Shown here: one piece after another, positions 17,979 to 33,471 of the stretch
Position numbering within the stretch: position 1 is the first letter of the stretch
How the letters are laid out: every line of letters begins with the position of its first letter
IMG/VR virus record: IMGVR_UViG_3300006880_000001
Coordinates: 1 to 64,000 of that record
Length of the DNA: 64,000 bases
Direction: 5' to 3' (one strand)
From: a virus
Notes under the pieces: model-generated
Told to the model about the DNA's origin: nothing
What the model saw: only the letters and a program-made list of their open reading frames with translations
The model's database searches: none
Translations under genes and position numbers: made by a program

Positions 17979-18044
17979 GAGCCCACGGTGGGCTCCTTTG
18001 GTGCGCTCCCCGGCAACGAGCCGGAGATGATCCTCTCGGAGCGC
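17979..18044 (-). promoter_or_regulatory. Structured intercistronic leader, copy 3
   Basis: Outer stem GCGCTCC/GGAGCGC (18044-18003), bulge GAGAGGATCATCT, shortened inner hairpin CCGGC-TCGTT-GCCGG, then hairpin B GAGCCCACCGTGGGCTC (17995-17979) and GAAAGGAG. The inner stem has lost one pair on both sides, consistent with selection for pairing. Confidence 0.75.
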
Positions 18045-18049
18045 TGACC

Positions 18050-18286
18050 TCACCGCGTCCAGGCTCGGATCGCCTGGAGTGCGCGCTCGCGCGTTTTGAA
18101 GCGTTGGTAGGTGGTCTCGGGGAGCCCACCATGCGGCGGATGCGAGACCACGATCTTGCCATTCCGCTCCCAGACAAAGGCCGTGCGGCCATTGGGGAGT
18201 CCGATCGCTCCGGTGGGGGCGTACCGGATCTCGACGCCGTTGGCGGCGAGGTAGTCGAGGAGGGCGGCAGCTTCCGTGACGCTCAT
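18050..18286 (-). CDS. Hypothetical protein, 78 aa
   Basis: ATG 18286 overlaps the upstream stop by 4 bp. Helical start (MSVTEAAALLDYLAANGVE), beta-rich middle, basic helical end. No family recognised. Confidence 0.55.
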   Translation of the reverse strand: MSVTEAAALLDYLAANGVEIRYAPTGAIGLPNGRTAFVWERNGKIVVSHPPHGGLPETTYQRFKTRERALQAIRAWTR

Positions 18287-19041
18287 GACTCCTCGCCGAA
18301 CGAGCGCGCCCACGCGATCACCTCGGCCGGTAGCTCGCGGTGGAGCCACGACGAGCCCAGCCGATACCCGCATTCGGGACAGACGGCGCGCTGCGCGTGC
18401 GCGTCGAGCGCAGCCTTGTGGTTGCGCCTGGCCGTGACGATGCGCGACCGCTCCTCGGCGAGTCGCGTCGCGCGTTCCGCCGCACTGCGGACATGGCCTA
18501 GGTCCGCCACCGGCGACGGCGCGACGTACGTGGGCTCCGCCTCGGCCCACGCCCGGAAGGTCTCGCCGCGGGCCTCCTGATGCTCGCAGGTGGACTTGAG
18601 GCTGTTCAGGTGGTAGCAGCGGTAGCGGGACACCTCGGGGAACCACTCATTGATGGCGCCCCCGATCTGGCCGCACGAGTCGAGGATCCAGACCTCGCCG
18701 TCTTGGGCCTCGCTCGCCATCTCGTCACGGGCGACGTCCAGCCCATGCAACTTGCCGTCGGTCTTGATGACGTAGCGCGCGGCTGCCTTCGCTGTCGCGC
18801 ACCGCGAGCCGGACCGCTGGTTCATGGCGGTGATCTCGTCGGGCTGATCCTCGAAGAACTGGATCCAGTAGTCGAGGGCGGTGCGCTCTGCCTCGGCGCG
18901 GGGGAGGATGCGGCCCTCCTGGCCGGTGATCGACAACTCCAATTTGCCGCCTCGGTCGTGCAGTGCGACGTGGACGGTGCACCACCGATCGCCTAGGCGG
19001 CGGGTCGCGCGACGGACAGACACAGTCTCGGTCTTGGACAC
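18283..19041 (-). CDS. Zinc-ribbon-containing hypothetical protein, 252 aa
   Basis: ATG 19041. Beta-rich N-terminal half with KLELSITGQEGRILP, a central Cys/His segment and a late CPECGYRLGSSW that looks like half a zinc ribbon. Alternation of beta strands and Trp-rich helices; no family assigned. Preceded by leader copy 4. Confidence 0.55.
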   Translation of the reverse strand: MSKTETVSVRRATRRLGDRWCTVHVALHDRGGKLELSITGQEGRILPRAEAERTALDYWIQFFEDQPDEITAMNQRSGSRCATAKAAARYVIKTDGKLHGLDVARDEMASEAQDGEVWILDSCGQIGGAINEWFPEVSRYRCYHLNSLKSTCEHQEARGETFRAWAEAEPTYVAPSPVADLGHVRSAAERATRLAEERSRIVTARRNHKAALDAHAQRAVCPECGYRLGSSWLHRELPAEVIAWARSFGEES

Positions 19042-19068
19042 GGTTGCTCTCCCCGGTTAGGGTCTCAC

Positions 19069-19136
19069 GGGCCCACCATGGGCCCCGTTGGCGCACGCCC
19101 CGGGCAACGAGCCCGGATCCGATCCGCTCGGCGTGC
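19069..19136 (-). promoter_or_regulatory. Structured intercistronic leader, copy 4
   Basis: Outer stem GCACGCC/GGCGTGC (19136-19093), bulge GAGCGGATCGGAT, inner hairpin CCGGGC-TCGTT-GCCCGG, then hairpin B GGGCCCATGGTGGGCCC (19085-19069). The outer stem differs from copies 1-3 at paired positions. Confidence 0.75.
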
Positions 19137-19148
19137 TACGGCTGGCTC

Positions 19149-19814
19149 TCAGTCCTCGCGGTTCCAGCGCGGTTCGCGTACGGCCGTCGGCGTGGGCTCC
19201 TTGGGCCCGACACGCCACTCTCCGACCTTGTTTCCGTTCGCGTCGTGGATGAACCCATAGCGGATCCCTCGCGGGGCCACGCCGAGGACGTCATCTCCCC
19301 GCTCGCGCATCTGGCGCGCGATCGCGTCCACCGCGGACGCGACGTCGCTGCCGGTGCGCATGGCATCGTTGCCGAGATCGATCTCGACGGTGAATCGCAC
19401 CTCGGGCGCATCATCGTCCATGACCGACTGCAGGATGTCTCGCGCGGCCTCGGCGCGGCGAGATCCGCGCTTGACGGCGTCGAGAATGCTGTCAGCAAGC
19501 GCGAGCGTGGCTTCGCCCTTCATGCCGTCGTAGTAGCCCCTCGGCTGCGTGAAGTCCGCTTCCGACTTGTACGAGCACGCGCCGAGGATGTCGACGCCGT
19601 CGAAGTCTCCGAGGCGGGCTGTCACCTTGGCGCAGAACCACGCCCACAGGTTGCCCTTCGCTAGTTGCGCGCGGATCCAAGACACTGTCTCGGCGTCGTC
19701 CTCGGCGTCACCGGAGGCGAAGTGATCCGCGGGATCGGTATCCTCCTCCTCGATCTCGAGCTTGAACTCCACCCGCTCGCGGATCTTCTCGGCCAGCTCG
19801 TCTCTGTCCATCAT
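19149..19814 (-). CDS. Hypothetical protein, 221 aa
   Basis: ATG 19814 in the shared start context AAAGGCTAACCGCC-ATG. Acidic N-terminal helix, then WIRAQLAKGNLWAWFCAKV and GVDILGACSYKSEADF, a stretch that resembles GWDILGASHWAVGWYD in 21259-21927, so the two may be distant relatives. No known family. Confidence 0.6.
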   Translation of the reverse strand: MMDRDELAEKIRERVEFKLEIEEEDTDPADHFASGDAEDDAETVSWIRAQLAKGNLWAWFCAKVTARLGDFDGVDILGACSYKSEADFTQPRGYYDGMKGEATLALADSILDAVKRGSRRAEAARDILQSVMDDDAPEVRFTVEIDLGNDAMRTGSDVASAVDAIARQMRERGDDVLGVAPRGIRYGFIHDANGNKVGEWRVGPKEPTPTAVREPRWNRED

Positions 19815-19836
19815 GGCGGTTAGCCTTTCGTCATCC

Positions 19837-19902
19837 GAGCCCACCGTGGGCTCCGTGGTGCGCCACCCGGGCAGCGAACCCGGGGTGATCCGCTCGTGGC
19901 GC
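19837..19902 (-). promoter_or_regulatory. Structured intercistronic leader, copy 5
   Basis: Outer stem GCGCCAC/GTGGCGC (19902-19860), bulge GAGCGGATCAC, inner hairpin CCCGGGT-TCGCT-GCCCGGG, then hairpin B GAGCCCACGGTGGGCTC (19853-19837) and AAAGGCTAACCGCC before the ATG. Confidence 0.75.
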
Positions 19903-20111
19903 TACTCCTTGGATCGCGGTAGCGCGTCCTCGATCCGAGCCGCGAGATCGCGCAGCGCCCCCGCCAGATCTCGCGCGGCGTCGAGATCGGTCCGGCCCTG
20001 CCCCTCGGGTACGCGGCCCGCCGGTATGTAGGCTGTCCACTGCGCATCGCTGTCAGAGTCGCCGGCGCGAACGAGCCGGATCCGGCCCCCGAGCATTGAG
20101 CGTCCGATCAT
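19902..20111 (-). CDS. Small hypothetical protein, 69 aa
   Basis: ATG 20111, three bases after the upstream stop. N-terminal beta-rich part with a TAYIPAGRVPEG stretch, then a helix ending IEDALPRSKE. No family recognised. Confidence 0.5.
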   Translation of the reverse strand: MIGRSMLGGRIRLVRAGDSDSDAQWTAYIPAGRVPEGQGRTDLDAARDLAGALRDLAARIEDALPRSKE

Positions 20112-20114
20112 GGC

Positions 20115-20807
20115 CTACTCCTCCTCGACGGCGTAGCGGTCGGGGATGATTGCGTTGACGCGTGCCAGGAGCCACGTCTCGCGTTCGGTGAGCGGCCGGG
20201 GCCGGCCACAGAGCCCGGTGGCGCGGGTGGGATCGATCCTCTTGGGCTCGGGCCGGAACCCAGCCGTACCGCTGAGGAAGTCCCACCCACTGTTGCCGAT
20301 GGCGTTTTGCTGTGTGTCGAGCATGAACCCGAGCATCAGTTGCGCGCCGACGGCTTCGACGGCGCAACCCTTGACGGGTCCGTGGGCGCGGCGGCTGCTC
20401 TTCTCGGCGATCACTGCGCGACACCCATAGTCGTGCAACGCTTCGCACAGGATCGCGATCAGCGTCTCATCGTCCGTGCCGTCGTCGATTCCATCGCCGT
20501 CGAGGAGCCCCCACGAGTGCACGGCCGACAGGATGCTCGCGTCGCTGGCGAAGCCAGGCGAGACGGCGGACAGGGTCGCGAGCCACCGGTGGCCGTGGGG
20601 CAAGATGCCCTCCTCCTCGACATACTCGAGCTTGATCAGTAGGTACACAGGCCAGTCGCACGCGATCGGCTCGCCGACGCGCCAGAGCGTACCGTCGTCG
20701 CACTGATCGACGAAACTCCGGTAGGCCACACCGCGCAACAGGCGCAGCGGGGCGCCGGGGGGTCGGGGGTCGGACATGGCGGTTGCGTTCATATCGATGG
20801 CGGGCAT
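20115..20807 (-). CDS. Hypothetical protein, 230 aa
   Basis: ATG 20807 with AAAGGAG; a second ATG at 20777 is possible. Mixed alpha/beta with a Cys/Asp patch (FVDQCDDGTLWRV), an acidic loop (DGDGIDDGTDDE) that could bind metal, and an Arg/Leu-rich C-terminus ending YAVEEE. No family assigned. Preceded by leader copy 6. Confidence 0.6.
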   Translation of the reverse strand: MPAIDMNATAMSDPRPPGAPLRLLRGVAYRSFVDQCDDGTLWRVGEPIACDWPVYLLIKLEYVEEEGILPHGHRWLATLSAVSPGFASDASILSAVHSWGLLDGDGIDDGTDDETLIAILCEALHDYGCRAVIAEKSSRRAHGPVKGCAVEAVGAQLMLGFMLDTQQNAIGNSGWDFLSGTAGFRPEPKRIDPTRATGLCGRPRPLTERETWLLARVNAIIPDRYAVEEE

Positions 20808-20841
20808 CTGCTAGACGCTCCTTTGGCTTTCGCCACTTATG

Positions 20842-20908
20842 GCGCCCACCACGGGCGCCGTGGGGTGCTCCCCGGGCAACGAGCCCGGATCCGATCCGCT
20901 CGGAGCAC
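20842..20908 (-). promoter_or_regulatory. Structured intercistronic leader, copy 6
   Basis: Outer stem GTGCTCC/GGAGCAC (20908-20865), bulge GAGCGGATCGGAT, inner hairpin CCGGGC-TCGTT-GCCCGG, then hairpin B GCGCCCGTGGTGGGCGC (20858-20842). Confidence 0.75.
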
Positions 20909-20923
20909 GCGGTGCGGCTGCGG

Positions 20924-21253
20924 CTAGGGCTCGCCGCGGCCGTCGAGGAACGGATCGCAGTCCGCCTCCTCCTCCTCCTCCTCCTCCTCGTCGTCCGCCT
21001 CGTCGTCGCCCTCCTCCGCGTCGTCGCCCTTGCGAATCTCGGCGAGCCACTCCTCGCCGAGATCGATGGCTCGCGCCGCGGTGAGCGTGTACAGATCCGG
21101 GTGCCCGGACTGACACTCCACGTTCTCCCAGCCGTCACGGCGGGACGCCCACAGGTTGAGATACGATCCGTTGATCGTGACGAGTAGCCCCAACTCCTCG
21201 TCGCACGCGACGATCGGACCGTTGCTCAGTACGTCGAAAATGGTCATGGACAT
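20924..21253 (-). CDS. Acidic-tailed hypothetical protein, 109 aa
   Basis: ATG 21253 with GGAAAGGCTAATCGCC upstream. A beta-rich N-terminal domain (FDVLSNGPIVACDEELGLLV) and an extremely acidic C-terminus with eight consecutive Glu encoded by a CTC repeat. Acidic tails of this kind occur in DNA-mimic and chaperone-like phage proteins; no assignment. Confidence 0.6.
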   Translation of the reverse strand: MSMTIFDVLSNGPIVACDEELGLLVTINGSYLNLWASRRDGWENVECQSGHPDLYTLTAARAIDLGEEWLAEIRKGDDAEEGDDEADDEEEEEEEEADCDPFLDGRGEP

Positions 21254-21258
21254 GGCGA

Positions 21259-21927
21259 TTAGCCTTTCCGGTGGAGGGGTTGCAGCCACAGCGCCAGCGA
21301 CGCGGCGATCACCGCGGCGCGCGCGAGGGCTTCGCGATCCTCGCGAGACCAGCGCACGATCCAGTTGTCCGACGCGTCGGCAAACTCGTCGCATGGCTCG
21401 ACGCGGCAGAACGCGATCAGCGCGTCCATGTCGAGATCGCCCTCGATCGTCCACCGGATCGGATCCAACTCGTCGTCAAACAGATCAGCCGCGGTGATTT
21501 CCTCGGCAATCCGGGCCAGATCGTGCGCGAGATCCTGGCAGATGCCGGGCCATTGCGCATCGCGCAGCGCCGACTCCATCTCCGCGTGGCGCGTGTCGTT
21601 CAGGATCAGGTAGCTCGCGAGTGCGGCGGCGCACTCCTGCAGGATCTTCACGAGATCGGCTCGGGTCGGATCGACGATGATATGGTCATACCATCCCACA
21701 GCCCAGTGCGAGGCACCGAGGATGTCCCACCCCGTCTCATCGGGATCCGCCGCTCGGAGTTGCGCGACGATCTCATCATGGTTGCAGCGATCGACGACGC
21801 CCGAGTCCCGATGGACTCCGCCGACGAGCGCGAAGCGCCACCCCTGCTCGGTGACCCGCTTGTCGCTGCAAGCGAAATTCGGAATGTCCTCGTAGCGCTT
21901 CAAGACTTCGATCTCGGTGACGGACAT
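21259..21927 (-). CDS. Hypothetical protein, 222 aa
   Basis: ATG 21927 in the shared start context CTAACCGCC-ATG. Mostly helical with GWDILGASHWAVGWYD (similar to part of 19149-19814) and a late beta/alpha region rich in Asp/Glu and Trp. No family assigned. Preceded by leader copy 7. Confidence 0.6.
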   Translation of the reverse strand: MSVTEIEVLKRYEDIPNFACSDKRVTEQGWRFALVGGVHRDSGVVDRCNHDEIVAQLRAADPDETGWDILGASHWAVGWYDHIIVDPTRADLVKILQECAAALASYLILNDTRHAEMESALRDAQWPGICQDLAHDLARIAEEITAADLFDDELDPIRWTIEGDLDMDALIAFCRVEPCDEFADASDNWIVRWSREDREALARAAVIAASLALWLQPLHRKG

Positions 21928-21948
21928 GGCGGTTAGCCTTGCCTTTCC

Positions 21949-22014
21949 GGGGCTACCGTAGCCCCCTAGTGCACCCCCCGGGCAACGAGCCCGGATCCGA
22001 TCCGCTCGGGGCGC
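21949..22014 (-). promoter_or_regulatory. Structured intercistronic leader, copy 7
   Basis: Outer stem GCGCCCC/GGGGTGC (22014-21971), bulge GAGCGGATCGGAT, inner hairpin CCGGGC-TCGTT-GCCCGG, then hairpin B GGGGCTACGGTAGCCCC (21965-21949). Hairpin B keeps its form while replacing CCAC/GTGG by CTAC/GTAG, a compensated change. Confidence 0.75.
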
Positions 22015-22021
22015 CGCGCTG

Positions 22022-22750
22022 TCACTCGTCGTCGTCGACGGGCGCAACGTACATGCATCGCGTGGTCGCGGGGCGCGGCATGAGGCGCGCGGCGCCCGCA
22101 TCCGTGGCGCGGACGGTCCAATACGTCACGGTGTCGTCCGAGATCTGCGCCAGCCGATCGGCGATATCTTGGACGTCTAGCTCGAGCTGGATCTGAGGGT
22201 CCGTACCGTCGGGCTCGGACGCGGTGTCCGCGTAGGTGTCGCCCTGGTACGTCACGACGACAAACAACGGCAACTCCACGATACAGCGTCCCTCACGGCA
22301 TTCCCGACAGGGTGCATCGACGCGATCGGACTCGAAGTCCGCTCCAAAACGATGGCTACCGCAGCGCGCACACGGCACTTGCGGACCGGGGTTGACGCGA
22401 TGGGGGATCCGCTCACCGTTCATGTTCCGGCAATGGATTTCCCGGGTCGGAGCCGTGTCGTCGTCGTCGTCGTCGTCGTCGTCGGTCCCGAACATCTCAT
22501 CGAGCGCCGCGCGCGCCTCGTCGGCGGAGTCGTGCGGACCGGTCCAATCCGTACAGTCGAGGTAGCCCGGGGCCGACAGGCGCGCCCACCACTTGCCGTC
22601 GACAGTCTCGACGGAGGCGGGATCGCAGCCCGTCTCTTCAGCGAAGCGCTCGTGGCTGCCCCATACGTACGCCGGGGCGACGTACGTCTCCCCACCGGCG
22701 TCGCCAACATGGAAAGCCTCTTGCGTCACCTCTGGTCTCATGAATGACAT
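22022..22750 (-). CDS. Zinc-ribbon and poly-Asp protein, 242 aa
   Basis: ATG 22750 in the CTAACCGCC-ATG context. Contains a run of nine Asp (encoded by a GTC repeat), then CARCGSHRFG and CRECREGRC, two CxxC-type pairs of a zinc ribbon. N-terminal 90 residues include a Trp/Tyr-rich part. First gene of the leader-bearing early run; probably a regulator or adaptor, unassigned. Confidence 0.6.
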   Translation of the reverse strand: MSFMRPEVTQEAFHVGDAGGETYVAPAYVWGSHERFAEETGCDPASVETVDGKWWARLSAPGYLDCTDWTGPHDSADEARAALDEMFGTDDDDDDDDDTAPTREIHCRNMNGERIPHRVNPGPQVPCARCGSHRFGADFESDRVDAPCRECREGRCIVELPLFVVVTYQGDTYADTASEPDGTDPQIQLELDVQDIADRLAQISDDTVTYWTVRATDAGAARLMPRPATTRCMYVAPVDDDE

Positions 22751-22770
22751 GGCGGTTAGCCATCCTTTCC

Positions 22771-22853
22771 GAGCCCCACCGCGGGGCTCCTAGTGCGCCG
22801 CGTGGCAGCGAGCCACGGCGATCCCACTGTGGGATCCGATCCACTCACGGCGC
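22771..22853 (-). promoter_or_regulatory. Structured intercistronic leader, copy 8 (variant with extra hairpin)
   Basis: Outer stem GCGCCG/CGGCGC (22853-22795), bulge GAGTGGATCG, an additional hairpin GATCCCAC-A-GTGGGATC (22836-22820), inner hairpin CGTGGC-TCGCT-GCCACG, then hairpin B GAGCCCCGCGGTGGGGCTC (22789-22771). Inner stem sequence is unlike all other copies yet fully paired. Confidence 0.75.
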
Positions 22854-22862
22854 AAACCTATC

Positions 22863-22880
22863 GGAAACACGTGTGTTTCC
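22863..22880. promoter_or_regulatory. 18-bp palindrome, possible operator
   Basis: GGAAACAC-GT-GTGTTTCC, perfect 8-bp arms, upstream of the first leader-bearing gene 22022-22750. Likely site for a dimeric regulator of the long leftward operon. Confidence 0.45.
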
Positions 22881-23289
22881 CTTGGCCAAATCCTCTAGCC
22901 CCCGCTGTTTCGCTGTCACGCAAGATCCACGCGTCCCCCCACACCCCTCCACCTAGCGCTCGCATCCGCAAGCGCGCTACGCGCGTTCCCAGCACGGTCG
23001 GGCGATGGCCTATTCGGTTGTCACGCCCCGGGCGCCGTCGGCGCCGCGTGGCAGCTGTAGCTCCCCAGGGGGCGAACCCCGGGCCGATCTCGCGGTCGGG
23101 CGATGGACCCTGCCGCTTAGCCGTCGGGCGCGCGTAGCGCCGTGGCGTCCACCGAGCGCGCGTCCCGGGACCGTGCGCGGCCGCCCGAGGGTGGGCTGGC
23201 GCCGCGCGTAGGCCCGGACGTGCGTCCGGCGCGATCGGATGTAGGTGCTAGTCGTACCTCCGTCGCCCCACCGTGGGGCCAAAGGGTGA

Positions 23290-23714
23290 AAGTCTCGTGG
23301 GTTGCCGTGAGAAACCCGTGGAAATCCCACAGGAAACTCGCCGCTACTCGCCGGCCCATCACTGCGACCGGGGAGTCAACCGTAGCAACGAGTAGGTTTA
23401 GACGCAAGCCCCGTGAAAACTATCTCACAAACTCACGTAATTATTACTGTTTTCCACGTGTTCGTGTGAGCCATACACGGGATTTTCGCGGCTACTCACG
23501 TGTAACCCACGGAAAACTCACAGGAATCGCGGAGTGCCGTGTAACTGTGCGAATCCCCTGTGGAAATCCCACGGCGGACTCACGGCTACCCACGGGCTAC
23601 CCACGGCCGACTCACGGCCCGTACACGGGCGCCTGGCGTACGGGACGCGGGTGGCCGTGAGCGGCCCGTGGGTGACTCACGGCGCACTCGCACCCACACA
23701 CGGCGGATTCACGT
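23290..23714. repeat. Helically phased CACG(G) iteron array
   Basis: Fifteen forward CACG sites at 23434, 23455, 23476, 23497, 23508, CACAGG at 23519, then 23570, 23581, 23591, 23602, 23613, 23624, 23678, 23699 and 23710. Steps are 10-11 or 21 bp with two gaps of 51 and 54. Three inverted CGTG sites at 23296, 23306 and 23317 precede them. Core heptads are CTCACGG and CCCACGG. The AT-rich segment sits among the first sites. An RHH gene follows immediately, the setting of plasmid centromeres and iteron origins. Confidence 0.75.
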
Positions 23715-23747
23715 GGGATCGCCGGGGCCCGCGGTAGGCTCGTGGGT

Positions 23748-24017
23748 GTGGATACCCGGGTGATCGGCGTACGACTCCCCCCGGAGATCGTGGCGCGGTT
23801 GGAAGCGATGGAGCGCCAGACGCGGCTCAGTCGCTCGGAGCTACTGCGGCGGATCATCATTACGGCTTTGCAAGGCCAGCCCGACGTCGATGGGGCCCGC
23901 ATCGAGGCCGAGGAGCGGAAGCGCGCGTATGCGGATGCCGTCCGTCTCATCGCGAAGCGGCTGCGCAAGGTCCTCGACGAGGAGCTGGTGGGCAAGCTCA
24001 TCTCACGGAGGGGGTGA
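23748..24017 (+). CDS. Ribbon-helix-helix DNA-binding protein
   Basis: 89 aa from GTG 23748 (TAGGCT ends 7 nt upstream; a GTG two codons earlier is possible). Residues about 4-45 give the RHH pattern: strand RVIGVRLPPEI, helix VARLEAMERQT, turn, helix RSELLRRIIITAL. The C-terminal half is a basic, helical tail. Lies directly beside the CACG array, so it is the likely array-binding protein, either a segregation adaptor of ParR/ParG/Omega type or a repressor. No ParA/ParM-type motor gene was seen next to it. Confidence 0.75.
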   Translation: MDTRVIGVRLPPEIVARLEAMERQTRLSRSELLRRIIITALQGQPDVDGARIEAEERKRAYADAVRLIAKRLRKVLDEELVGKLISRRG

Positions 24018-24866: not shown

Positions 24867-25265
24867 TCACGTGTGGCCGAGCTTCTTACCGAAGTCGATC
24901 CAGGAGGAGATCTCCTTGCTCAGGACCGCGTCTGGCCAGACGTCCGGCGAGTAGGGGACGTCCCCGAAGCCCTCGATGTCGGCGATGACGAGCGCCAGCA
25001 GTCGGTGGGCCTGCTCGCCCGGTCCTGGCTTGACGATCGCGTCGTGGGCGTCCCCGGGCGTGCCCTCGACGACCGCGATGACCGGAGCGTCGTGGGCCGG
25101 GTCGTAGGGTCCGTGCAGCTCGCCGAAGAGGCTTCGGATGGTCGTCAGACCGAAGCGGCAACCAGGCCAACGTCGCTCGCAGAGGCTGCGCGCGGCGCGT
25201 TCGTCCCCTTCGAAGCAGGGCTTCTGGATGCCCTTCTCCCACGCGGCGACGATGACCTTCTTCAC
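24867..25265 (-). CDS. Hypothetical protein in sugar operon, 132 aa
   Basis: GTG 25265 overlaps the dehydrogenase stop by 4 bp. VKKVIVAAWEKGIQK, then a mixed domain with Cys residues and GPYDPAHDAPVIAVVEG. No family recognised; coupled to the sugar genes. Confidence 0.55.
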   Translation of the reverse strand: MKKVIVAAWEKGIQKPCFEGDERAARSLCERRWPGCRFGLTTIRSLFGELHGPYDPAHDAPVIAVVEGTPGDAHDAIVKPGPGEQAHRLLALVIADIEGFGDVPYSPDVWPDAVLSKEISSWIDFGKKLGHT

Positions 25266-26611
25266 GGGTTGAACCAGCCCGGGCGACCGATCCGCACGTA
25301 GTCGACGCCCTTGGCGGCCCAGTCGTGGCCTTCCCAGCTGCCGTGGGCGTCGATGATGGTCTGGTGACCCCCTCGCCACCGTTCTTGGGGCCAGCTCGCG
25401 TAGGCGTCGTGTGCGGTGGCCAGGACGACGACGTCCGCGCTGCGAACTTCCTCGGTGGAGCCCGCTGCACGCAGCCCCTGGTGATCGATCCGCTTCACCA
25501 TCTCGTCCAGCTCCGCCGGCGAGAAGAGTGGATCGTGGACGACGATGGAGGCGTCGAAGGGATGGCACAGGCTCAGGGCCTTGGCGAGCCGCAGCCCGGG
25601 GGACATGCCCACGTCTCGGAAGTTGGGACGGTAGCCGAGACCGAGGACCGCGACTGCGGGCGAAGGGTTGCTCGTCCACACCCTGCGCCGCGTCTTGTGC
25701 CAGATGAGCTTGGCGATCTCGGTGCTGATCCCCTCTTCGGCGAGGTTGGCGACGTCGAACATCGTCTGCGGGTCGCAGATGGACGTCCGCCCCCGAGGGG
25801 TGTCGATGTGGCGGTACGTCCCCTCCGCGAGGTACTTGCTGCCGAGGGGAACGCAGCGCCCTCCGCTGCCGAGGCCGAAGTAGAGGGAGCCGAAGGACTC
25901 GAAGCGCCAGTGGGTCGCCGCCAGCTGCACCGCGGTGGCGACGTCGACGTTCGGGTACGACAGCGCGACGTCGTGGACCAGCATGATGACGCTATGGAAG
26001 ATGGCGTTCTCGAGCGGCTTCACGAGCTCGGCGGTCTCGAGGTCGGTCGTCATGATGCGGTCGCGCGGCGTCACGCAGGTCAGGACCTCGATCGCCTTCG
26101 CCAGGCTGACCTCATCGAGGGCGCCGACGACGCGGGGCAGGTTGCTCAGGTTCTTGTCCGGGCTGGCGAACCAGTCTCGCCTGGGTGCGTGGGCGAACGT
26201 GTGCCCGCATGCGGCGGCTGCCTCCGCGAGCGGGCGGAGCGTCCCTGGCGTCACCGTGCTCTCGACGATGATGCAGGTGGGCTTACGTGCGTTGTCGCAG
26301 ATCCAGCGCACGGTCTCGACGACCGCGTCCATCCACGGCGCGTCACGACGTTCCGACGGCACCGCTAGGATGTGCGCGTCGGCGTCGAGGTCGAGCGTGG
26401 CGGTGCGGTCCGTGGTGGCCCAGAGGCGATCACGGTAGTGGACCTCCGCCAGGTAGCTGAGGAACTCGCCGGCCTTCGGCGCGCCGTTGTTGATGGCGTC
26501 GACGACGGTCGGATCCGGATCGTAGCCGACGACGCCAGCCAGTCGACTCCCGGCGAAGTGGACCGCGGCGGTCAGGCCGACGTAGCCGAGGCCGTGGACC
26601 GCGATCTTCAC
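25262..26611 (-). CDS. UDP-glucose/UDP-ManNAc 6-dehydrogenase family enzyme
   Basis: 449 aa from GTG 26611. N-terminal NAD-binding Rossmann motif (AVHGLGYVGLTAAVHF), a central helical linker, and the catalytic Cys in GSGGRCVPLGSKY, then a C-terminal sugar-binding domain (GLGYRPNFRDVGMSP). It oxidises a UDP-sugar C6 to a uronic acid. With WecB-like 30154-31188 nearby, UDP-ManNAc (giving ManNAcA) is a plausible substrate; UDP-glucose is the alternative. Coupled to the methyltransferase upstream. Confidence 0.85.
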   Translation of the reverse strand: MKIAVHGLGYVGLTAAVHFAGSRLAGVVGYDPDPTVVDAINNGAPKAGEFLSYLAEVHYRDRLWATTDRTATLDLDADAHILAVPSERRDAPWMDAVVETVRWICDNARKPTCIIVESTVTPGTLRPLAEAAAACGHTFAHAPRRDWFASPDKNLSNLPRVVGALDEVSLAKAIEVLTCVTPRDRIMTTDLETAELVKPLENAIFHSVIMLVHDVALSYPNVDVATAVQLAATHWRFESFGSLYFGLGSGGRCVPLGSKYLAEGTYRHIDTPRGRTSICDPQTMFDVANLAEEGISTEIAKLIWHKTRRRVWTSNPSPAVAVLGLGYRPNFRDVGMSPGLRLAKALSLCHPFDASIVVHDPLFSPAELDEMVKRIDHQGLRAAGSTEEVRSADVVVLATAHDAYASWPQERWRGGHQTIIDAHGSWEGHDWAAKGVDYVRIGRPGWFNP

Positions 26612-27312
26612 GCGCCCTCCTTGGGGGAGCCGAGGCGCCACTTCGCGGCAGGCTTCACGCATCGGAAGGTGCGGAAGAGACCGTTGGCGTAGTCGAAGGT
26701 CGATTCGACCTTGAGCCCGGCGGACTCGAGGAGGTTGGTACCTTCGGAGACCGTGTACGATCGCGAGTAGGGGCAGCCCTCTCCGTCGGTGGCCCACCCG
26801 AAGGCCTGGCCCTGGGTGAGCCCCCGTGCCATGTGCTTCTGGGTCTCCTCGGCGAGGTTCTTCTCGAGGCCTTCGGTGTAGAGCATGATGGCCGCGCGAC
26901 CGCCGGGCTTGAGGACGCGGACGAACTCGTCGAGGACAGGGCGCGGGTCCTCGATGTGGTGGAGGACCCCGTGGCAGTTGACCACGTCGACCGTGCCGTC
27001 GGGCAGCATGGTCTTGTCCGAGTGCATGAGGGGGACGCCGATCGCCTTGGCCAGGTACCCGGCCGCCTGGACGCGCGCCATCGTCATGCGGACGTTGGTG
27101 ATGACGACGTCCGCGAACCAGACGGTACAGCCGCGCCGGAGGAGGCTCATCGTGTCGGAGCCCCCGCCGCAGCCGTACTCGAGCACCGCCTGCCCTGCGA
27201 CCCGATCGAACTCATGGGCAATGGCGTGATCCGGGTAGCACTTCTCCTTGTCGGGCGGGTACCCCGACGCGCACTGCCAGAACTGTCGAACCACAGTGAG
27301 ATCGGTGTCCAT
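26608..27312 (-). CDS. SAM-dependent methyltransferase
   Basis: 234 aa, class I fold with motif I VLEYGCGGGSDTMSL and post-motif VVNCHGVLHHIEDP. ATG 27312 has a GTCAC-class promoter with TAGGGA 8 nt upstream. A clear paralogue of 35854-36531. Likely modifies a sugar or glycan component. Confidence 0.8.
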   Translation of the reverse strand: MDTDLTVVRQFWQCASGYPPDKEKCYPDHAIAHEFDRVAGQAVLEYGCGGGSDTMSLLRRGCTVWFADVVITNVRMTMARVQAAGYLAKAIGVPLMHSDKTMLPDGTVDVVNCHGVLHHIEDPRPVLDEFVRVLKPGGRAAIMLYTEGLEKNLAEETQKHMARGLTQGQAFGWATDGEGCPYSRSYTVSEGTNLLESAGLKVESTFDYANGLFRTFRCVKPAAKWRLGSPKEGA

Positions 27313-27320
27313 GGCTTCGA

Positions 27321-27356
27321 TCCCTACCACGGGCCGGTGACCGAACATGGTAAAGT
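27321..27356. promoter_or_regulatory. Divergent GTCAC-class promoters sharing one box
   Basis: GTGAC/GTCAC at 27337-27341 serves both directions. Leftward: 10 nt then TAGGGA (27326-27321), 8 nt to ATG 27312. Rightward: 9 nt then TAAAGT (27351-27356), 8 nt to ATG 27365. Confidence 0.7.
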
Positions 27357-27364
27357 GCCGGAAC

Positions 27365-28372
27365 ATGAAGCTCAGGATCGTGGTCACCGGCGCCCGCGGC
27401 TTCGTGGGTAGCATCTTCGCCCTCCGCGCCTTCGAGCGCGGCCACGCGGTCTTGGCTCTCGACGACGAGAGCCGAGGCCTCAACGACATCGAGGCAGCCA
27501 TCGGGCTCTGCTACCAGCGGCACGACTGCCTCGGCGGCATGCGCGACATCGCCGCGTCGTTCCTGGGGACGACCGACGTCGTCGCCCACTTCGCCGCCGC
27601 CACCGGGTCGCTCGAACGTCCGATCGACGAGCTCCGCGACTACAACGTCGGCATGACCCAGCGGGTCTACGAGGACGCCCTGGCGCTCGGCGCCAAGACC
27701 TTCCTCTGGCCCACCACCTCGCTGGCCCTGGGCGTACCCGACTCGCCCTACGTCCAGTCGAAGGAGGAGGGGCTCACCAAGCTCCGCGAGATCGACGCCA
27801 AGGCACGCATCTCGGTGCCGGTCCGGTTCTTCAACGTCGCCGGCGCCTACAAGGGATTCAGTGAGCTCCGCCGGAACGAAGTCCACGCGATCCCGGTGAT
27901 GCTGCAGAACTACCTGAACCGGACGCCCTTCATCGTCAACGGCGACGACTACGACACCGTCGACGGCACGCCGTCGCGCGACTTCGTCCACATCTTCGAC
28001 GTCGTCGAGTACCTCCTCGACATCGCCGAGGGCAAGATCCACCCCTGCGCCCACCGTACGGACGGCGCGGTATGGCTCGGCACCGGCATCGAGACCACCG
28101 TCCGTCATCTCATCCGCCTGTTCGACCATGCCGTCGGCCATCTCGACCACCGAATCGGTCCCCGCCGCGCGTTCGACTGTGGCCGGCTCGTGGTCGACCC
28201 GGACCAGCGGCAGCAGTTCTGGCGCGCGCGTAACGGCCTGGCCCCGTCCTGGGTCGCCGTCCGCGACGAGCTGACCGCGCTCTTGCACGCACCCCGCGAG
28301 CTTCTCGGCCTCCGCGTGATCGAGGTAGAACCCCAAGCGAAGACCGTCCCCGCGATGATCATGGGGCGCTGA
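27365..28372 (+). CDS. NAD-dependent sugar epimerase/dehydratase (GalE-like)
   Basis: 335 aa, extended SDR family: glycine motif TGARGFVGS near the N-terminus and active-site YVQSK (Tyr-x-x-x-Lys), followed by the ERPIDE-type substrate region. Start at ATG 27365 follows the promoter by 8 nt; an upstream ATG at 27347 is less likely. Probably an epimerase or dehydratase on a nucleotide sugar. Confidence 0.85.
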   Translation: MKLRIVVTGARGFVGSIFALRAFERGHAVLALDDESRGLNDIEAAIGLCYQRHDCLGGMRDIAASFLGTTDVVAHFAAATGSLERPIDELRDYNVGMTQRVYEDALALGAKTFLWPTTSLALGVPDSPYVQSKEEGLTKLREIDAKARISVPVRFFNVAGAYKGFSELRRNEVHAIPVMLQNYLNRTPFIVNGDDYDTVDGTPSRDFVHIFDVVEYLLDIAEGKIHPCAHRTDGAVWLGTGIETTVRHLIRLFDHAVGHLDHRIGPRRAFDCGRLVVDPDQRQQFWRARNGLAPSWVAVRDELTALLHAPRELLGLRVIEVEPQAKTVPAMIMGR

Positions 28373-28566
28373 TGCGGACGACGGTTCTTCCGATGGTGTC
28401 GCCCGCCGCCGTCGCGTGGCTCGTCTACCTGGCGCTGTTCGGTCTCTTGGTGTGGGCGCTTGCGGACGGCCTCAGGGTCGAAGGTGGGATCATGCTCCTG
28501 CTGGCGTGCATGCCCCGACGTGGCCGTGCGTTGCCACCATCGCCGCCGCCTCGTCGCGAGCGATGA
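28372..28566 (+). CDS. Small membrane protein, 64 aa
   Basis: ATG 28372 overlaps the epimerase stop (TGATG). One strong membrane segment (AVAWLVYLALFGLLVWALA) followed by a second hydrophobic stretch and a Pro/Arg-rich tail. Its end overlaps the convergent glycosyltransferase by 77 bp, so the tail is uncertain. Confidence 0.5.
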   Translation: MRTTVLPMVSPAAVAWLVYLALFGLLVWALADGLRVEGGIMLLLACMPRRGRALPPSPPPRRER

Positions 28567-30157
28567 GATCGCGCGTCACCTGATCGTCGGATGACGTCTG
28601 GGAGTTGTTCGACGAGGCGCCGTCCGCGGACACGCGCCAGTAGGCCTCCGGCTTCATGTCGTTGGCGTGGAAGCGGATGTACTGGATCTGCTCGGCGGTG
28701 GGGTCGACGTAGAGCTCGTCGCCGTGGACCCCACGCCAGACTGGACGCGCGACCCGGGTCAGGCGGTAGTTGGACAGGAAGTCCTCCATGTTGACGAGCC
28801 GCGGGTCGACATGGCTGCCCCAGCGCCGCTTGACCTCGCGGAGCGCCGACGTGCGCGCCGCGATGTTCGCCCAGCTGAGCACGAAGCCGCCCCGGCCGAG
28901 GGTACGGATCGCCTCCTCCGCGGGCATTGGAGCGTTGCAGAGCTCGGCCTTCTGTCCGTCGCGGAAGACCTGGTAGGGGCCGTAGCAGAGCGCGTGGTCG
29001 CGGAGCGCTCGCGCGTCGAGGAGGAGCTTGTTGGGCTCGAACCAGTCGTCGGAGCCAAGGCGGGTCCAGTACTCCGTCCACTCGCAGGCGAGGTCCATCC
29101 CGATCTCGTTCAGGGCGACAGCGCCCAGCTTCGGGTACCGCGCGTAGAAGACGCGGGGATCGCGATCCTGCCAGCGCCGCATGATGCTGCACGTGTCGTC
29201 GGTGGACCCATCGTCGAGGACGACCGCGATCCAGTACGGGTAGACCTGGCGCTCGAGGGACGCCAAGGTCTCGTCGAGGGCCCACCCGCGGTTGTGGGTC
29301 GGGATCACGACCGTGAAGGTCTGCTGCCGGGCCTTCATGTCGCCGAGGACCCGATCGATCAGCTCGACCTCCCGGGGCGTGTAGGGCCGGGGCATCCCCT
29401 CGCTCGTACGTTGCACCTGCCGGAAGCTCGCCGACTCGAAGTGGAGATGTCGGTTCGAGTCGCCAAGGCCGTTCCGGTAGGTCACGACCTTCCAGATGAG
29501 GTTCTTGCCGTAGTTCCCCCAGTGGATCACTTCGTAGGGGAAGACCTCGAGCTCGCCATCGTGACCCAGGAACTGTCGCGGGAACTGCGCGTGGTGGGTC
29601 CGGTAGACGACGTCGAAGCAGAGGTCCGGCGACCACCGCCACAGCTTCACGAACCAGCCGTCGTCGAAGCCGTAGTCGGTTCTCGCCCAGGTCGCGTTCC
29701 GCCACAGCTGGGTGTAGTGGCAGCGGTACGCCGGCGCGAGCTTGGGCAGCGTCGGGTCGCGCGGCGCAGCCGGGTCGCCGAGGCGTTCATGACAGAAGGC
29801 GCGGATGGCCGTGACGCCCTCGGGGGAGAGCTCCTCGTCGCCGTCGGCCCACCAGATGAAGTGGGGCCGTAGGCGATGGACGATCTGCATCATCCGATCC
29901 TTGACGGCCAGCTCGTTGCGGAAGTCCTGCTCCGCGGGATCGATCAGGAGGAGGTGCTCGGCGGGGATCTCGCGCTGCAGGACCGCGCGCGTCCCGTCGA
30001 TGGAGGCGTCGTCGCAAGCGACGATCACATCGCAGAACTGCCGCAGGTTGTTCAGGACCCGCGCGAGGTCCCCCTCCCGTACGATCTCGTTCCTGACCTT
30101 GAGGAAGCCACAGATGAGCGGGCGGTTCTCGTCGGACACGTCGGGGAGCTCCTTCAT
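28490..30157 (-). CDS. Tandem GT2-domain glycosyltransferase, 555 aa
   Basis: Two GT-A domains in one chain. N-terminal part has CDDASIDGTRAV and a metal-binding WADGDEEL. The C-terminal part restarts with VVIPTHNRGWALDETL, DDGSTDDTCS and LGSDDWFEP, closely like 35009-35854. The double domain is a processive or two-step transferase arrangement. Overlaps the WecB-like gene by 4 bp. Confidence 0.85.
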   Translation of the reverse strand: MKELPDVSDENRPLICGFLKVRNEIVREGDLARVLNNLRQFCDVIVACDDASIDGTRAVLQREIPAEHLLLIDPAEQDFRNELAVKDRMMQIVHRLRPHFIWWADGDEELSPEGVTAIRAFCHERLGDPAAPRDPTLPKLAPAYRCHYTQLWRNATWARTDYGFDDGWFVKLWRWSPDLCFDVVYRTHHAQFPRQFLGHDGELEVFPYEVIHWGNYGKNLIWKVVTYRNGLGDSNRHLHFESASFRQVQRTSEGMPRPYTPREVELIDRVLGDMKARQQTFTVVIPTHNRGWALDETLASLERQVYPYWIAVVLDDGSTDDTCSIMRRWQDRDPRVFYARYPKLGAVALNEIGMDLACEWTEYWTRLGSDDWFEPNKLLLDARALRDHALCYGPYQVFRDGQKAELCNAPMPAEEAIRTLGRGGFVLSWANIAARTSALREVKRRWGSHVDPRLVNMEDFLSNYRLTRVARPVWRGVHGDELYVDPTAEQIQYIRFHANDMKPEAYWRVSADGASSNNSQTSSDDQVTRDLIARDEAAAMVATHGHVGACTPAGA

Positions 30158-31188
30158 GGCTTGGCGCGGGTGAGGACGTCCACGATGCGCTCGGCGGCAC
30201 GCCCATCGCCGAATGTACCCTTACTGGTCCGCACCCGTCCCAAAAAGGACGAGACGAGCTCCGGCAGCGTCGAGATGTCTCGGACCAACTGACAGGCGCC
30301 GTCGAGGGCCTCCGGCCGTTCCGTGACGTCGCGCAGGATGAGGCACGGCCGTTCAGCGTCGGCGGCCTCCTCGATCAAGCCCCCCGAGTCGGTGATGACC
30401 ACGGCAGCGGTAGCCACGAGCTGGGCCATGGTCTCGTGGCGAACCGGCTGGAGGATGATGATGTCCGGGTGGTCTCGCACCACCGCCTCGACGGCGCGGC
30501 TGATGAGCGGATTCGGGTGTACCGACCAGAGGATCTTGAGCCGCTCGTTGGCGCACGCTCGTACGGCTTCGGCGATGAGGCGGATGCGCGGCCAATTCTC
30601 CCGACGGTGAACCGTGACCAGCGCGTAGTCGTCGCTGAGGGTCCGGCGGAGGTTCCGACACGCGTTGCGGAAGGCGTCGATGCCGGTGTTGCCCGTGATC
30701 GCGACCCGACCGAGGACGCGTTCGCGGTGGAGGTTCTGCGACGCGTGGGGCGTGGGTGCGAAGTGGAGCGTCGCGATCTGGCTGATGAGCCGCCGGTTGC
30801 CCTCCTCCGGGTACGGCCATTCGGAGTAGGTACGAAGGCCCGCTTCGACGTGCGCCACCACCGCCCCGCGGTACCACGCGGCCAACGCACCCGCGAGCGC
30901 CGTCGTGGTGTCGCCCTGAACCACCACGACGTCGGCATCGTGCTGCCTCAGGTGCATGCTGACCGCCGCGATCGCTTGCCCCAGGAGGATGTCGAGCCCC
31001 GTATCGGAGGTGCGATCGATGGGGGCCACATCGGCCGACAGCCCCGTCTCGGCCAAGTGCTTCTGCAAGAGATGCGCTTGCTGGCCGATCGCGAGCACGC
31101 GGTGTTGGACCTGGCGGGACGCCAGGACGTTGCAGATCGGCGCAAGCTTGATGAGCTCGGGCCGTGTGCCGAGAACCACGGTGATCAT
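30154..31188 (-). CDS. wecB: UDP-N-acetylglucosamine 2-epimerase
   Basis: 344 aa with WecB/MnaA signatures: VLGTRPELIKLAP at the N-terminus, QGDTTTALAGALAA, HVEAGLRTYSEW and PEEGNRRLISQIA, VTVHRRENW and VITDSGGLIEEAA. Converts UDP-GlcNAc to UDP-ManNAc. Leader has GGAGG and an extended -10 TGG-TATTGG upstream, so this gene has a normal ribosome site, unlike its divergent neighbour. Confidence 0.9.
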   Translation of the reverse strand: MITVVLGTRPELIKLAPICNVLASRQVQHRVLAIGQQAHLLQKHLAETGLSADVAPIDRTSDTGLDILLGQAIAAVSMHLRQHDADVVVVQGDTTTALAGALAAWYRGAVVAHVEAGLRTYSEWPYPEEGNRRLISQIATLHFAPTPHASQNLHRERVLGRVAITGNTGIDAFRNACRNLRRTLSDDYALVTVHRRENWPRIRLIAEAVRACANERLKILWSVHPNPLISRAVEAVVRDHPDIIILQPVRHETMAQLVATAAVVITDSGGLIEEAADAERPCLILRDVTERPEALDGACQLVRDISTLPELVSSFLGRVRTSKGTFGDGRAAERIVDVLTRAKP

Positions 31189-31211
31189 GGTGGCGCCTCC
31201 ACCAATACCAC

Positions 31212-31223
31212 ACGGAGTTCCGT
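31212..31223. promoter_or_regulatory. Palindrome between divergent promoters
   Basis: ACGGAGTTCCGT, 5-bp arms around GT, midway between the extended -10 of the leftward WecB-like gene and that of the rightward transferase at 31245. Confidence 0.35.
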
Positions 31224-31244
31224 ATCCGTGCTAACTGGATGGAC

Positions 31245-32057
31245 ATGGAACGGCCTCCGCTGCTCTGCGCTGCGATGCCTACCCGGAACGACCGCCTGCC
31301 GCTCCTACCTTGGGCCATCCGCCAATGGCTCGCGCAGACCGAAGACGTCCGTGGCAGCGCCTTCTGCCAACTCTGGATCGGCGTCGACGGAGGGTGGTCG
31401 GACGCCGCGCGGGTCACCACGTGGTTGACCCAGCAGCTGCACGGTCTACCGCCCGAAGTACTCATCGTCCCCATCCCGTTCGCAGGTGCGATCGGTGGGA
31501 AGCGCAACCTCCTCCTGGAGGAGATCGACCGCGGAACGGAGCGCCTCGGCCTGAAGGTCTGGATCCTCACCTGGGACGACGACGACTTCCATGGACCGAA
31601 CCGCCTCCTCTACACCACCCGCGCGATCCAGAAGGACCGCAACGTGACCGTCCTCGGCACGCGCATCATGAAGATCTTCCTGCTCCCGCGCGGTGAGGCG
31701 TGGCGCTATGAGTACCCTGCGGGGCGCCGCCCGGAGTACTACGTCGGCGGCACCATGGCGTTCCGGATCGACGAATGGCGGGCAGAGCCATACAGCGGGG
31801 CGGCCAAGACCGGCGAGGATGCCACCTGGGTCGTGAACCGCATCATGGCGGGCGCGGTCCACGCAGAGATTCCCCACGTCGGCGACGAGTACGTCGCCAT
31901 CTACCACACCGGCAACACGGCCTCACAGCTCCCACCCGAAGACGGCTTCCGAGATCCCTGGTTCGAACCGACGACGCTGGCGCCTTCCTTCTGGGCCGCC
32001 TGGCCGGAGATCGACGCGGCCTACCAGGCATTTCGAGGAACGGCCACCGCACCGTGA
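31245..32057 (+). CDS. Probable glycosyltransferase, 270 aa
   Basis: GT-A-type protein with the DxD-like metal motif in WDDDDFHGPNRLL and PFAGAIGGKRNLLLEE. ATG 31245 is chosen because TGC-TAACTG ends 7 nt upstream, matching the leaderless rule; ATG 31239 in the same frame is possible. First gene of a rightward cluster toward the tRNA-like gene. Confidence 0.75.
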   Translation: MERPPLLCAAMPTRNDRLPLLPWAIRQWLAQTEDVRGSAFCQLWIGVDGGWSDAARVTTWLTQQLHGLPPEVLIVPIPFAGAIGGKRNLLLEEIDRGTERLGLKVWILTWDDDDFHGPNRLLYTTRAIQKDRNVTVLGTRIMKIFLLPRGEAWRYEYPAGRRPEYYVGGTMAFRIDEWRAEPYSGAAKTGEDATWVVNRIMAGAVHAEIPHVGDEYVAIYHTGNTASQLPPEDGFRDPWFEPTTLAPSFWAAWPEIDAAYQAFRGTATAP

Positions 32058-32063
32058 TACTTA
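32043..32063 (+). promoter_or_regulatory. GTCAC-class promoter (GCCAC variant)
   Basis: GCCAC, 10 nt, TACTTA (32058-32063), 7 nt to ATG 32071, overlapping the end of the previous gene. Confidence 0.55.
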
Positions 32064-32070
32064 TGGCCTG

Positions 32071-32403
32071 ATGCTGCCCAAGCCGTTGCGGTCCGGCGCC
32101 AAGCTCCACCTCTCCAACCGCTTCCGCGCCACCCTTCTGAAGGCTGTCGACGTAGCGTTTGCCATGGCGCTCGTTGACGATCCCACGCTCGAGAGGTTGC
32201 GCGCCCAGGTCACCAACCGACTTGGAGCGCGGTTACCGCTCACGGAGCGTCAGACGACACGTACGGCCCGCGTGCTGCTTGAGGCCATGTTGATCACTTT
32301 CTCCACGCACCTCGATGCAAAGGACCGGGCGGAGATGGAATCCTTCCTGGAGATGATCGAGGCGAAGAATGCGCAGGTTGCCAAGCGGAAGAGGCGCCGC
32401 TAG
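32071..32403 (+). CDS. Small basic helical protein, 110 aa
   Basis: ATG 32071. Helical with basic N-terminus (MLPKPLRSGAKLHLSNRFRA) and a C-terminal tail VAKRKRRR like other poly-Arg-tailed proteins here. No family recognised. Confidence 0.65.
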   Translation: MLPKPLRSGAKLHLSNRFRATLLKAVDVAFAMALVDDPTLERLRAQVTNRLGARLPLTERQTTRTARVLLEAMLITFSTHLDAKDRAEMESFLEMIEAKNAQVAKRKRRR

Positions 32404-32414
32404 ACGATCCGTAG

Positions 32415-32435
32415 GTCACAGCGCCGTGATACGGT
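32415..32435 (+). promoter_or_regulatory. GTCAC-class promoter
   Basis: GTCAC (32415-32419), 10 nt, TACGGT (32430-32435), 7 nt to ATG 32443. Confidence 0.65.
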
Positions 32436-32442
32436 TCGCGGC

Positions 32443-32607
32443 ATGATCCTGCCCTACGTTCCCGTCCTCGTCATGGTCGCTGGTCTCTTGCTGTACCTGC
32501 TGAGCAGCAACGCGAAGGCGCAGGAGCTCGGCCGGATCCTGTTCTTCGTCGGTCTGTTCTTCACGGTCGGTGTCATCGGCGGTGCGAAGGTCCTGACCCT
32601 CAAGTAG
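32443..32607 (+). CDS. Small membrane protein, 54 aa
   Basis: MILPYVPVLVMVAGLLLYLL, a short polar stretch (SSNAKAQELGR), then a second membrane helix (ILFFVGLFFTVGVIGGAKVL). Two helices with a short loop, typical of small phage membrane or holin-like proteins. Good promoter but no family. Confidence 0.6.
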   Translation: MILPYVPVLVMVAGLLLYLLSSNAKAQELGRILFFVGLFFTVGVIGGAKVLTLK

Positions 32608-32634
32608 TTCACCGACGGTGATCGATCACGGCCC

Positions 32635-32663
32635 TTGACACGCCTACATGGTGTCGCTAGGTT
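32635..32663 (+). promoter_or_regulatory. Probable sigma70-like promoter
   Basis: TTGACA (32635-32640), 17-nt spacer, TAGGTT (32658-32663) ahead of the PTH2-like gene. A leaderless ATG at 32671 would be 7 nt downstream but is out of frame with the gene (see 32666-33025). Confidence 0.5.
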
Positions 32664-32665
32664 CG

Positions 32666-33025
32666 GTGGCATGTCCCATTGACCGTCAGCCGCCCGCGGC
32701 CACGTCACTCGCCCACTACGTCGTCATCCGCGCTGACCTCCCCCTCGGGTTGAAGGTCGCCAACACAGTCCACGCAGCTGGGCTATCCGCCTCCTGGCGA
32801 GACGGTCCGCTGCCCACCGACACCATCGCCGTGGCTCTCGCCGCGCGTGATGAGAGCCACCTCCACGAGCTCTCCGTGAAGCTCGCGGAGCGCAACATCC
32901 TCCACCACCCTGTCCGTGAGTCCGACGGACCCTACGCGGGGCAGTGGATGGCCATCGGCCTCGAGCCGACCGCCGACCGCGACGCGGTCAGAAAGGTGGT
33001 CTCGCACCTACCGCTCGTGCGGTGA
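32666..33025 (+). CDS. PTH2-like peptidyl-tRNA hydrolase family protein
   Basis: About 119 aa. HYVVIRADLPLGLKVANTVHAAG, then IAVALAARDESHLHELSVKLAE and NILHHPVRESDGPYAGQWMAIGLEP match the peptidyl-tRNA hydrolase 2 fold, with the catalytic-site Asp region in RESDGP. Start uncertain: GTG 32666 is in frame; the best-placed ATG (32671) gives only a 3-codon frame. If active it would recycle peptidyl-tRNA. The tRNA-like gene lies 85 bp downstream. Confidence 0.7.
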   Translation: MACPIDRQPPAATSLAHYVVIRADLPLGLKVANTVHAAGLSASWRDGPLPTDTIAVALAARDESHLHELSVKLAERNILHHPVRESDGPYAGQWMAIGLEPTADRDAVRKVVSHLPLVR

Positions 33026-33109
33026 ACGTTCCTGGGGTCGTGGTGTACGCACGCACGCGCCGTCCTCGCGCCGGCGAAGACCTGGCCTGCCGCCAGGCGA
33101 CCCCACCAA

Positions 33110-33186: not shown

Positions 33187-33189
33187 GCT

Positions 33190-33210
33190 GTCACCCTGTT
33201 GTGGTAACGA
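33190..33210 (+). promoter_or_regulatory. GTCAC-class promoter
   Basis: GTCAC (33190-33194), 10 nt, TAACGA (33205-33210), 8 nt to ATG 33219, immediately after the CCA end of the tRNA-like gene. Confidence 0.6.
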
Positions 33211-33218
33211 TGCGGGGT

Positions 33219-33470: not shown

Positions 33471-33471
33471 G

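What the first reader, a model, noticed from the sequence alone, without database searches (positions are those of the whole stretch)
23290..24017. CACG array phased at 11/21 bp beside a ribbon-helix-helix gene: candidate centromere
Forward CACG(G) sites at 23434, 23455, 23476, 23497, 23508, 23519, 23570, 23581, 23591, 23602, 23613, 23624, 23678, 23699 and 23710 step by 10-11 or 21 bp, i.e. on one face of the helix, with three inverted sites before them and an AT-rich segment inside. An RHH protein starts 34 bp after the last site. Known parallels are the 11-bp iterons of plasmid R1 parC bound by RHH ParR, heptads bound by RHH Omega, and R388 stb repeats that work with a single DNA-binding protein. 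No ParA, ParM or TubZ is adjacent, so a one-protein segregation or an origin/repressor array is possible.
Basis: partly seen in the sequence, partly recalled or inferred. Interest (0 to 1): 0.86.

Follow-up and report, generated by a model that had tools for sequence, protein, structure and literature searches.

The report
Phased binding-site array before phage RHH gene
A complete but otherwise unknown 129-kb phage genome carries about two dozen short DNA sites, all on one face of the helix and in both orientations, leading straight into the promoter of a small DNA-binding (ribbon-helix-helix) gene, which looks like a large self-regulating protein-DNA assembly that might also act as a motor-less centromere.

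Summary
Window = part of a 129,359-bp phage record with a 110-bp exact terminal repeat (complete map). Between 23296 and 23744 lie 14 CACG, one CACA and 9 independent CGTG sites with a 10.6-bp period (R=0.90). It is the only such cluster in the genome (motif-free z about 9.6). New finding: the inverted sites share the forward sites' helical phase when measured at the tetramer centre (p=5e-6; 0.001 with neighbours lumped). So the binder is probably two-fold symmetric, as a ribbon-helix-helix (RHH) dimer is. The only RHH gene in the genome follows. Its probable leaderless start (GTG 23748) has a -10 box, TAGGCT 23735-23740, embedded at the array's end, so autorepression is the best-supported function. 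The centromere reading is possible but unproven: no ParA, ParM or TubZ was found, so only a motor-less, R388 StbA-like mechanism would fit. The origin reading is weak: skew turning points lie elsewhere, and DnaA-type binding does not explain the orientation-blind phase. Fifty other phage records with 10-11-bp CACG arrays carry no confident RHH gene, so the repeat layout alone does not identify the binder. No close relative was found, so conservation could not be tested.

The parts
23296..23320 (-). Inverted trio of sites (CGTG at 23296, 23306, 23317), steps 10 and 11 bp, in phase with the forward array 117 bp downstream
23434..23522 (+). Forward cluster A: 23434, 23455, 23476, 23497, 23508 (CACG) and 23519 (CACA), steps 21,21,21,11,11
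23570..23627 (+). Forward cluster B: six CACGG at 23570, 23581, 23591, 23602, 23613, 23624, steps 10-11
23678..23713 (+). Forward cluster C: 23678, 23699, 23710, steps 21 and 11, next to the RHH promoter
23412..23744 (-). Interspersed inverted sites CGTG at 23412, 23463 (2.1 bp off phase), 23538, 23656, 23667, 23741
   Evidence: dev R list
23361..23530 (.). AT-rich segment in a 68% GC genome (52-55% AT in 100-bp windows starting 23361-23431; second most AT-rich place of 129 kb)
23735..23740 (+). Probable -10 box TAGGCT of the RHH gene, 7 bp before GTG 23748; the inverted site 23741 lies between it and the start
   Evidence: genome-wide TANNNT peak 6-8 bp before starts, 28 of 203 genes; assignment to this gene is inference
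23748..24017 (+). RHH_1 (CopG-type) protein, 89 aa from GTG 23748 (91 aa from GTG 23742); RHH about residues 6-43 of the 91-aa form, then a charged, probably helical C-terminal half (by eye)
22814..22873 (.). Outlying sites 22814+, 22846+, 22868+/22870- between the array and the divergent leftward gene that starts at 22729; possible second, minor target
   Evidence: weak

Best explanation
The array is the binding region of the adjacent RHH protein. RHH dimers bind pseudo-palindromic sites, consensus AYYCACGGS with a YCA|CGR core, spaced one or two helical turns (10.6 bp) apart in either orientation, so a row of dimers builds up along one face of about 42 turns of DNA. The promoter-proximal sites (23699, 23710, 23741) flank and overlap the -10 box and start of the RHH gene, so filling the array shuts the gene off. 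The roughly 20 further sites make a large cooperative complex whose extra role is undetermined: tighter switching, control of the divergent leftward gene block, or a centromere-like or handcuffing complex. Shown by computation: the sites, the phase, orientation independence, uniqueness in the genome, the RHH domain, no motor found. Inferred: binding, cooperativity, repression, any segregation role.
For: Phase and density. Reverse sites share the forward phase at the tetramer centre, as expected for a symmetric dimer; omega RHH dimers bind direct and inverted heptads (PMC9499535). Core conserved while spacers vary, so not fresh tandem slippage (contrast). Only dense cluster in the genome, next to its only RHH gene. 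Promoter-like TAGGCT at the array's end in a genome with a clear TANNNT-leaderless pattern. RHH regulators typically sit on their own promoters and spread from distal sites (PMC5569661).
Against: No binding data. In 50 other phage records with 10-11-bp CACG arrays none has an RHH hit over the cut-off, so such layouts are also used by other proteins. No relatives to test co-conservation. More than 20 sites is far more than an autorepressor needs.
Confidence: 0.62

Rival explanations
1. Motor-less centromere: the RHH-array complex stabilises the phage as a circular plasmid prophage, as StbA on its 11-bp-stepped repeats does for R388, for example by pairing with the nucleoid; autorepression comes with it.
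For: Array size; R388 stbDRs are two sets of five 9-bp repeats with 2-nt spacers (11-bp step) around their own promoter, and StbA works without StbB (PMC3098194). Two Xer-like tyrosine recombinases. Phage B83, a plasmid prophage, has an RHH adaptor and iterons (PMC6669507).
Against: No ParA/ParM/TubZ; no replicon-type Rep found; lysogeny not shown; B83 and R1 use a motor; StbA is not known to be an RHH protein (own knowledge).
Confidence: 0.25
2. Replication origin: the array holds initiator boxes (phage DnaA domain-IV protein or host DnaA) with an AT-rich unwinding segment.
For: AT-rich segment; motif NNAYYCACG resembles the DnaA box core; the phage encodes a DnaA domain-IV protein; several other phages carry 10-11-bp CACG arrays inside genes that look like replication initiators.
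Against: Skew extremes at 66 and 124 kb; no DnaA box of the standard searched forms at the array; no phased CAC array near DnaA-IV genes of six other phages and no DnaA-IV in 50 array-bearing records; orientation-blind phase is not expected of a monomeric initiator.
Confidence: 0.13
3. Packaging (pac) or other structural site bound by a protein encoded elsewhere; the RHH neighbour is incidental.
For: Repeated short motifs are known at some pac sites (own knowledge); similar arrays elsewhere lack RHH genes.
Against: No terminase hit in the window's scanned proteins nor with PF03237 in the genome; promoter and RHH gene directly abut the array.
Confidence: 0.08
4. Antitoxin-type operator of a toxin-antitoxin pair.
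For: Weak NCBIfam similarity to RelB-like and VapB antitoxins, far below cut-off.
Against: No partner gene in the operon: the RHH gene is followed by convergent genes; more than 20 sites.
Confidence: 0.03

Closest known systems
R388 StbA-stbDRs
   Same: 11-bp-step repeats around the promoter of the DNA-binding gene; stability without a motor (PMC3098194)
   Different: [quoted passage not shown] StbA not known as an RHH protein (own knowledge); here about 24 sites in both orientations, in a phage
R1 / pB171 ParR-parC (type II)
   Same: N-terminal RHH with a C-terminal extension; about 10-11-bp iterons at the promoter; autorepression (PMC5016525, PMC4949242)
   Different: ParM motor absent here; parC iterons are direct repeats only, here both orientations
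pSM19035 omega-parS (type Ib)
   Same: RHH dimer, sites containing CAC (WATCACW) in direct and inverted orientation overlapping promoters (PMC9499535)
   Different: 7-bp contiguous heptads and a ParA partner activated through an N-terminal tail; here 10.6-bp spacing, no ParA, no such tail
Archaeal virus RHH repressors AvtR/SvtR
   Same: Viral RHH repressors; SvtR represses its own gene and RHH proteins oligomerise from distal sites to the promoter (PMC5569661)
   Different: Few inverted-repeat operators, not a long in-phase array
Bacillus phage-plasmid B83 RHH/iterons
   Same: Phage with RHH protein and a nearby iteron region (PMC6669507)
   Different: B83 also encodes ParM

Membership tests
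RHH (CopG/Arc/MetJ) DNA-binding proteins | RHH_1 domain above Pfam gathering cut-off | tested here: met
   PF01402 31.0 bits against 20.5, E 2.2e-7
RHH-bound operator/centromere array | repeated short phased sites at the promoter of the RHH gene | tested here: met
RHH-bound operator/centromere array | specific binding by the RHH protein | not testable with these tools
   needs EMSA/footprint
Type II par (ParMRC) | actin-like ParM encoded with it | tested here: not met
   no such Pfam hit among scanned called proteins
Type Ib par (omega/ParG) | ParA partner and N-terminal arginine-finger tail | tested here: not met
   PF13614 absent; RHH begins about residue 6
R388 Stb-type motor-less segregation | DNA-binding protein alone stabilises the replicon through its repeats | not testable with these tools
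   needs plasmid-loss assay
DnaA-type origin | consensus DnaA boxes and skew minimum at the site | tested here: not met
   no TTWTNCACA in the window; skew extremes at 66/124 kb
Toxin-antitoxin operon | adjacent co-transcribed toxin gene | tested here: not met
   RHH gene followed by convergent genes

The most novel reading that the evidence does not exclude
A phage keeps its 129-kb genome as a plasmid prophage with a one-protein, motor-less centromere: an RHH protein coating about 42 turns of DNA through sites that are orientation-blind and share one helical face.
Probability: 0.18. Interest if true: 0.8.

Novelty: new variant of a known kind. Interest (0 to 1): 0.52.

Why it matters
It joins two features that are separate in the RHH systems compared here: 10-11-bp spacing (ParR) and orientation independence (omega), in a complete phage genome without a recognisable segregation motor. 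If the protein binds the whole array, it is a compact natural test of whether an RHH nucleoprotein filament alone can stabilise a large replicon or silence a divergent region. The shared-phase test at the tetramer centre is a simple way to ask of any repeat array whether its binder is a symmetric dimer.

Tried and rejected
Relatives of the RHH protein: none in viral contigs, phages, plasmids or the PDB. Relatives of the phage through a phrog_6077 protein and DNA polymerase A: none in viral contigs; the three records found through the DnaA-IV protein share only its TSCPD-like half, a distant polymerase and short fragments. Pattern scans for similar arrays: many in phages, some inside replication-like genes, none beside an RHH gene over the cut-off; those inspected in bacterial genomes are mostly near-perfect tandem repeats. 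DnaA-IV hypothesis: attractive by motif and 11-bp spacing, not supported by co-occurrence or by the orientation-blind phase. G001-G003 pattern hits looked like scattered matches in coding sequence. Sigma-70 and terminator scan: nothing.

Full report
What the window is. The window is bases 1-64000 of a virus record of 129,359 bases. The first and last 110 bases are identical, so the map is probably complete. GC is about 68%. It is a tailed-phage genome: PHROG hits include tape measure, minor head protein, endolysin, Dda-like helicase and thymidylate synthase, and Pfam gives DNA polymerase A. No close relative was found in viral contigs or in the phage and plasmid records.

The array. Forward CACG stands at 23434, 23455, 23476, 23497, 23508, 23570, 23581, 23591, 23602, 23613, 23624, 23678, 23699 and 23710, and CACA at 23519. 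Best period is 10.6 bp, R=0.90, reached by none of 5000 random placements. Without choosing a motif, in-phase 4-mer repetition at lags 10, 11, 21, 32, 42, 43 and 53 makes this region the strongest of 2623 windows in the genome, 8.7 against a mean of -0.2 (sd 0.93) and 3.2 for the best place elsewhere. With a matrix built from the sites, up to 22 hits fall in 300 bp here and at most 5 elsewhere. The consensus of 21 sites is A-Y-Y-C-A-C-G-G-S; the core is nearly invariant while most spacer positions are mixed. This differs from the near-perfect tandem repeats seen in bacterial genomes.

New property: the array is orientation-blind. With period and phase fixed by the forward sites only, the nine CGTG sites that are not part of CACGTG fall on the same phase; the phases differ by about 0.2 bp, i.e. 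a dyad offset of about 0.1 bp measured at the tetramer centre (V=0.88, p=5e-6). Parts of the region are related by imperfect inverted duplication, so neighbouring sites are not independent; treating neighbours as rigid blocks gives p=0.001. A binder with two-fold symmetry placed on the YCA|CGR core explains this directly. A monomeric asymmetric binder such as DnaA domain IV does not.

The neighbour. The ORF at 23742-24017 matches RHH_1 at residues 8-43 above Pfam's cut-off and is the only RHH_1 match in the genome. Across the genome, TANNNT ends 6-8 bp before the start codon in 28 of 203 genes, against 0-3 at other spacings, the mark of leaderless promoters. TAGGCT at 23735-23740 lies 7 bp before GTG 23748, so the start is probably 23748 and the promoter lies inside the end of the array. 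That gene assignment is inference.

Best explanation. RHH dimers bind along one face of about 42 turns of DNA and repress their own promoter. Binding, cooperativity and repression are inferred. RHH regulators often sit on their own promoter and spread from distal sites (PMC5569661), and omega dimers bind direct and inverted heptads (PMC9499535).

Centromere? R388 gives a true parallel: two sets of five 9-bp repeats with 2-nt spacers around the stb promoter, where StbA stabilises without the StbB ATPase (PMC3098194). In this phage no ParA and no ParM, TubZ or ParA-type family appeared in Pfam scans of nearly all called proteins. The protein lacks the N-terminal tail of type Ib centromere-binding proteins (PMC5016525). 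A motor-less centromere remains possible, and two Xer-like recombinases fit a circular prophage, but nothing here shows segregation.

Origin? The AT-rich stretch and the similarity of AYYCACG to the DnaA box core made me test this. The phage encodes a DnaA domain-IV protein 80 kb away. Cumulative skew turns at about 66 and 124 kb. DnaA-IV genes of six other phages have no phased CAC array nearby, and 50 phage records with CACG arrays have no DnaA-IV domain. Some of those arrays lie inside genes that look like replication initiators, so 10-11-bp arrays can be origins in other phages. I leave the origin reading at about 0.13.

Limits. Fifty other phage records with CACG arrays have no RHH match over the cut-off, so the layout alone does not point to RHH. 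Without relatives, co-conservation of array and gene could not be tested.

Noticed in passing
G000 103470-104219 (-), L004:3473-4219: Phage protein that fuses a DnaA domain IV (GNRHHTTV in place of GGRDHTTV) to a domain like the C-terminus of B12-dependent ribonucleotide reductase (TSCPD); no paper in the library holds the terms TSCPD, ribonucleotide reductase and DnaA together.
   Followed up: partly
whole record, e.g. 24864, 32414, 94774, 95920, 115873, 116399, 128360: Promoter class GGTCAC-N10-TANNNT, often 28-30 bp before start codons (15 hits); transcripts look leaderless.
   Followed up: partly
41-72 kb: 41413, 44493, 47282, 56515, 57914, 63806, 66098, 68380, 72234 and others: Palindrome GATCGNANNTTCGATC-like, often 32-35 bp before a start and just upstream of TANNNT: a second promoter/operator class.
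   Followed up: partly
L018 3568-3626, L031 8293-8395, L074 7537-7606, L129 75-104, L130 1248-1277 and others: Unrelated phages carry 10-11-bp CACG arrays inside or beside genes that look like replication initiators; possible in-gene origins.
   Followed up: partly
window 24867-37292: Block of sugar-nucleotide and glycosyltransferase-like genes (UDPG/GDP-mannose dehydrogenase, epimerase-like, glycosyltransferases) directly after the array locus.
   Followed up: no
window 1491-2387 and 4645-5520 (-): Two Xer/integrase-like tyrosine recombinases near the record's left end.
   Followed up: no
G000 80449-81208: Intergenic stretch with the most AT-rich 100 bp of the genome; possible origin candidate.
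   Followed up: no
window 18000-23000: GC skew of the + strand turns negative although the genes there are leftward like those before them.
   Followed up: no
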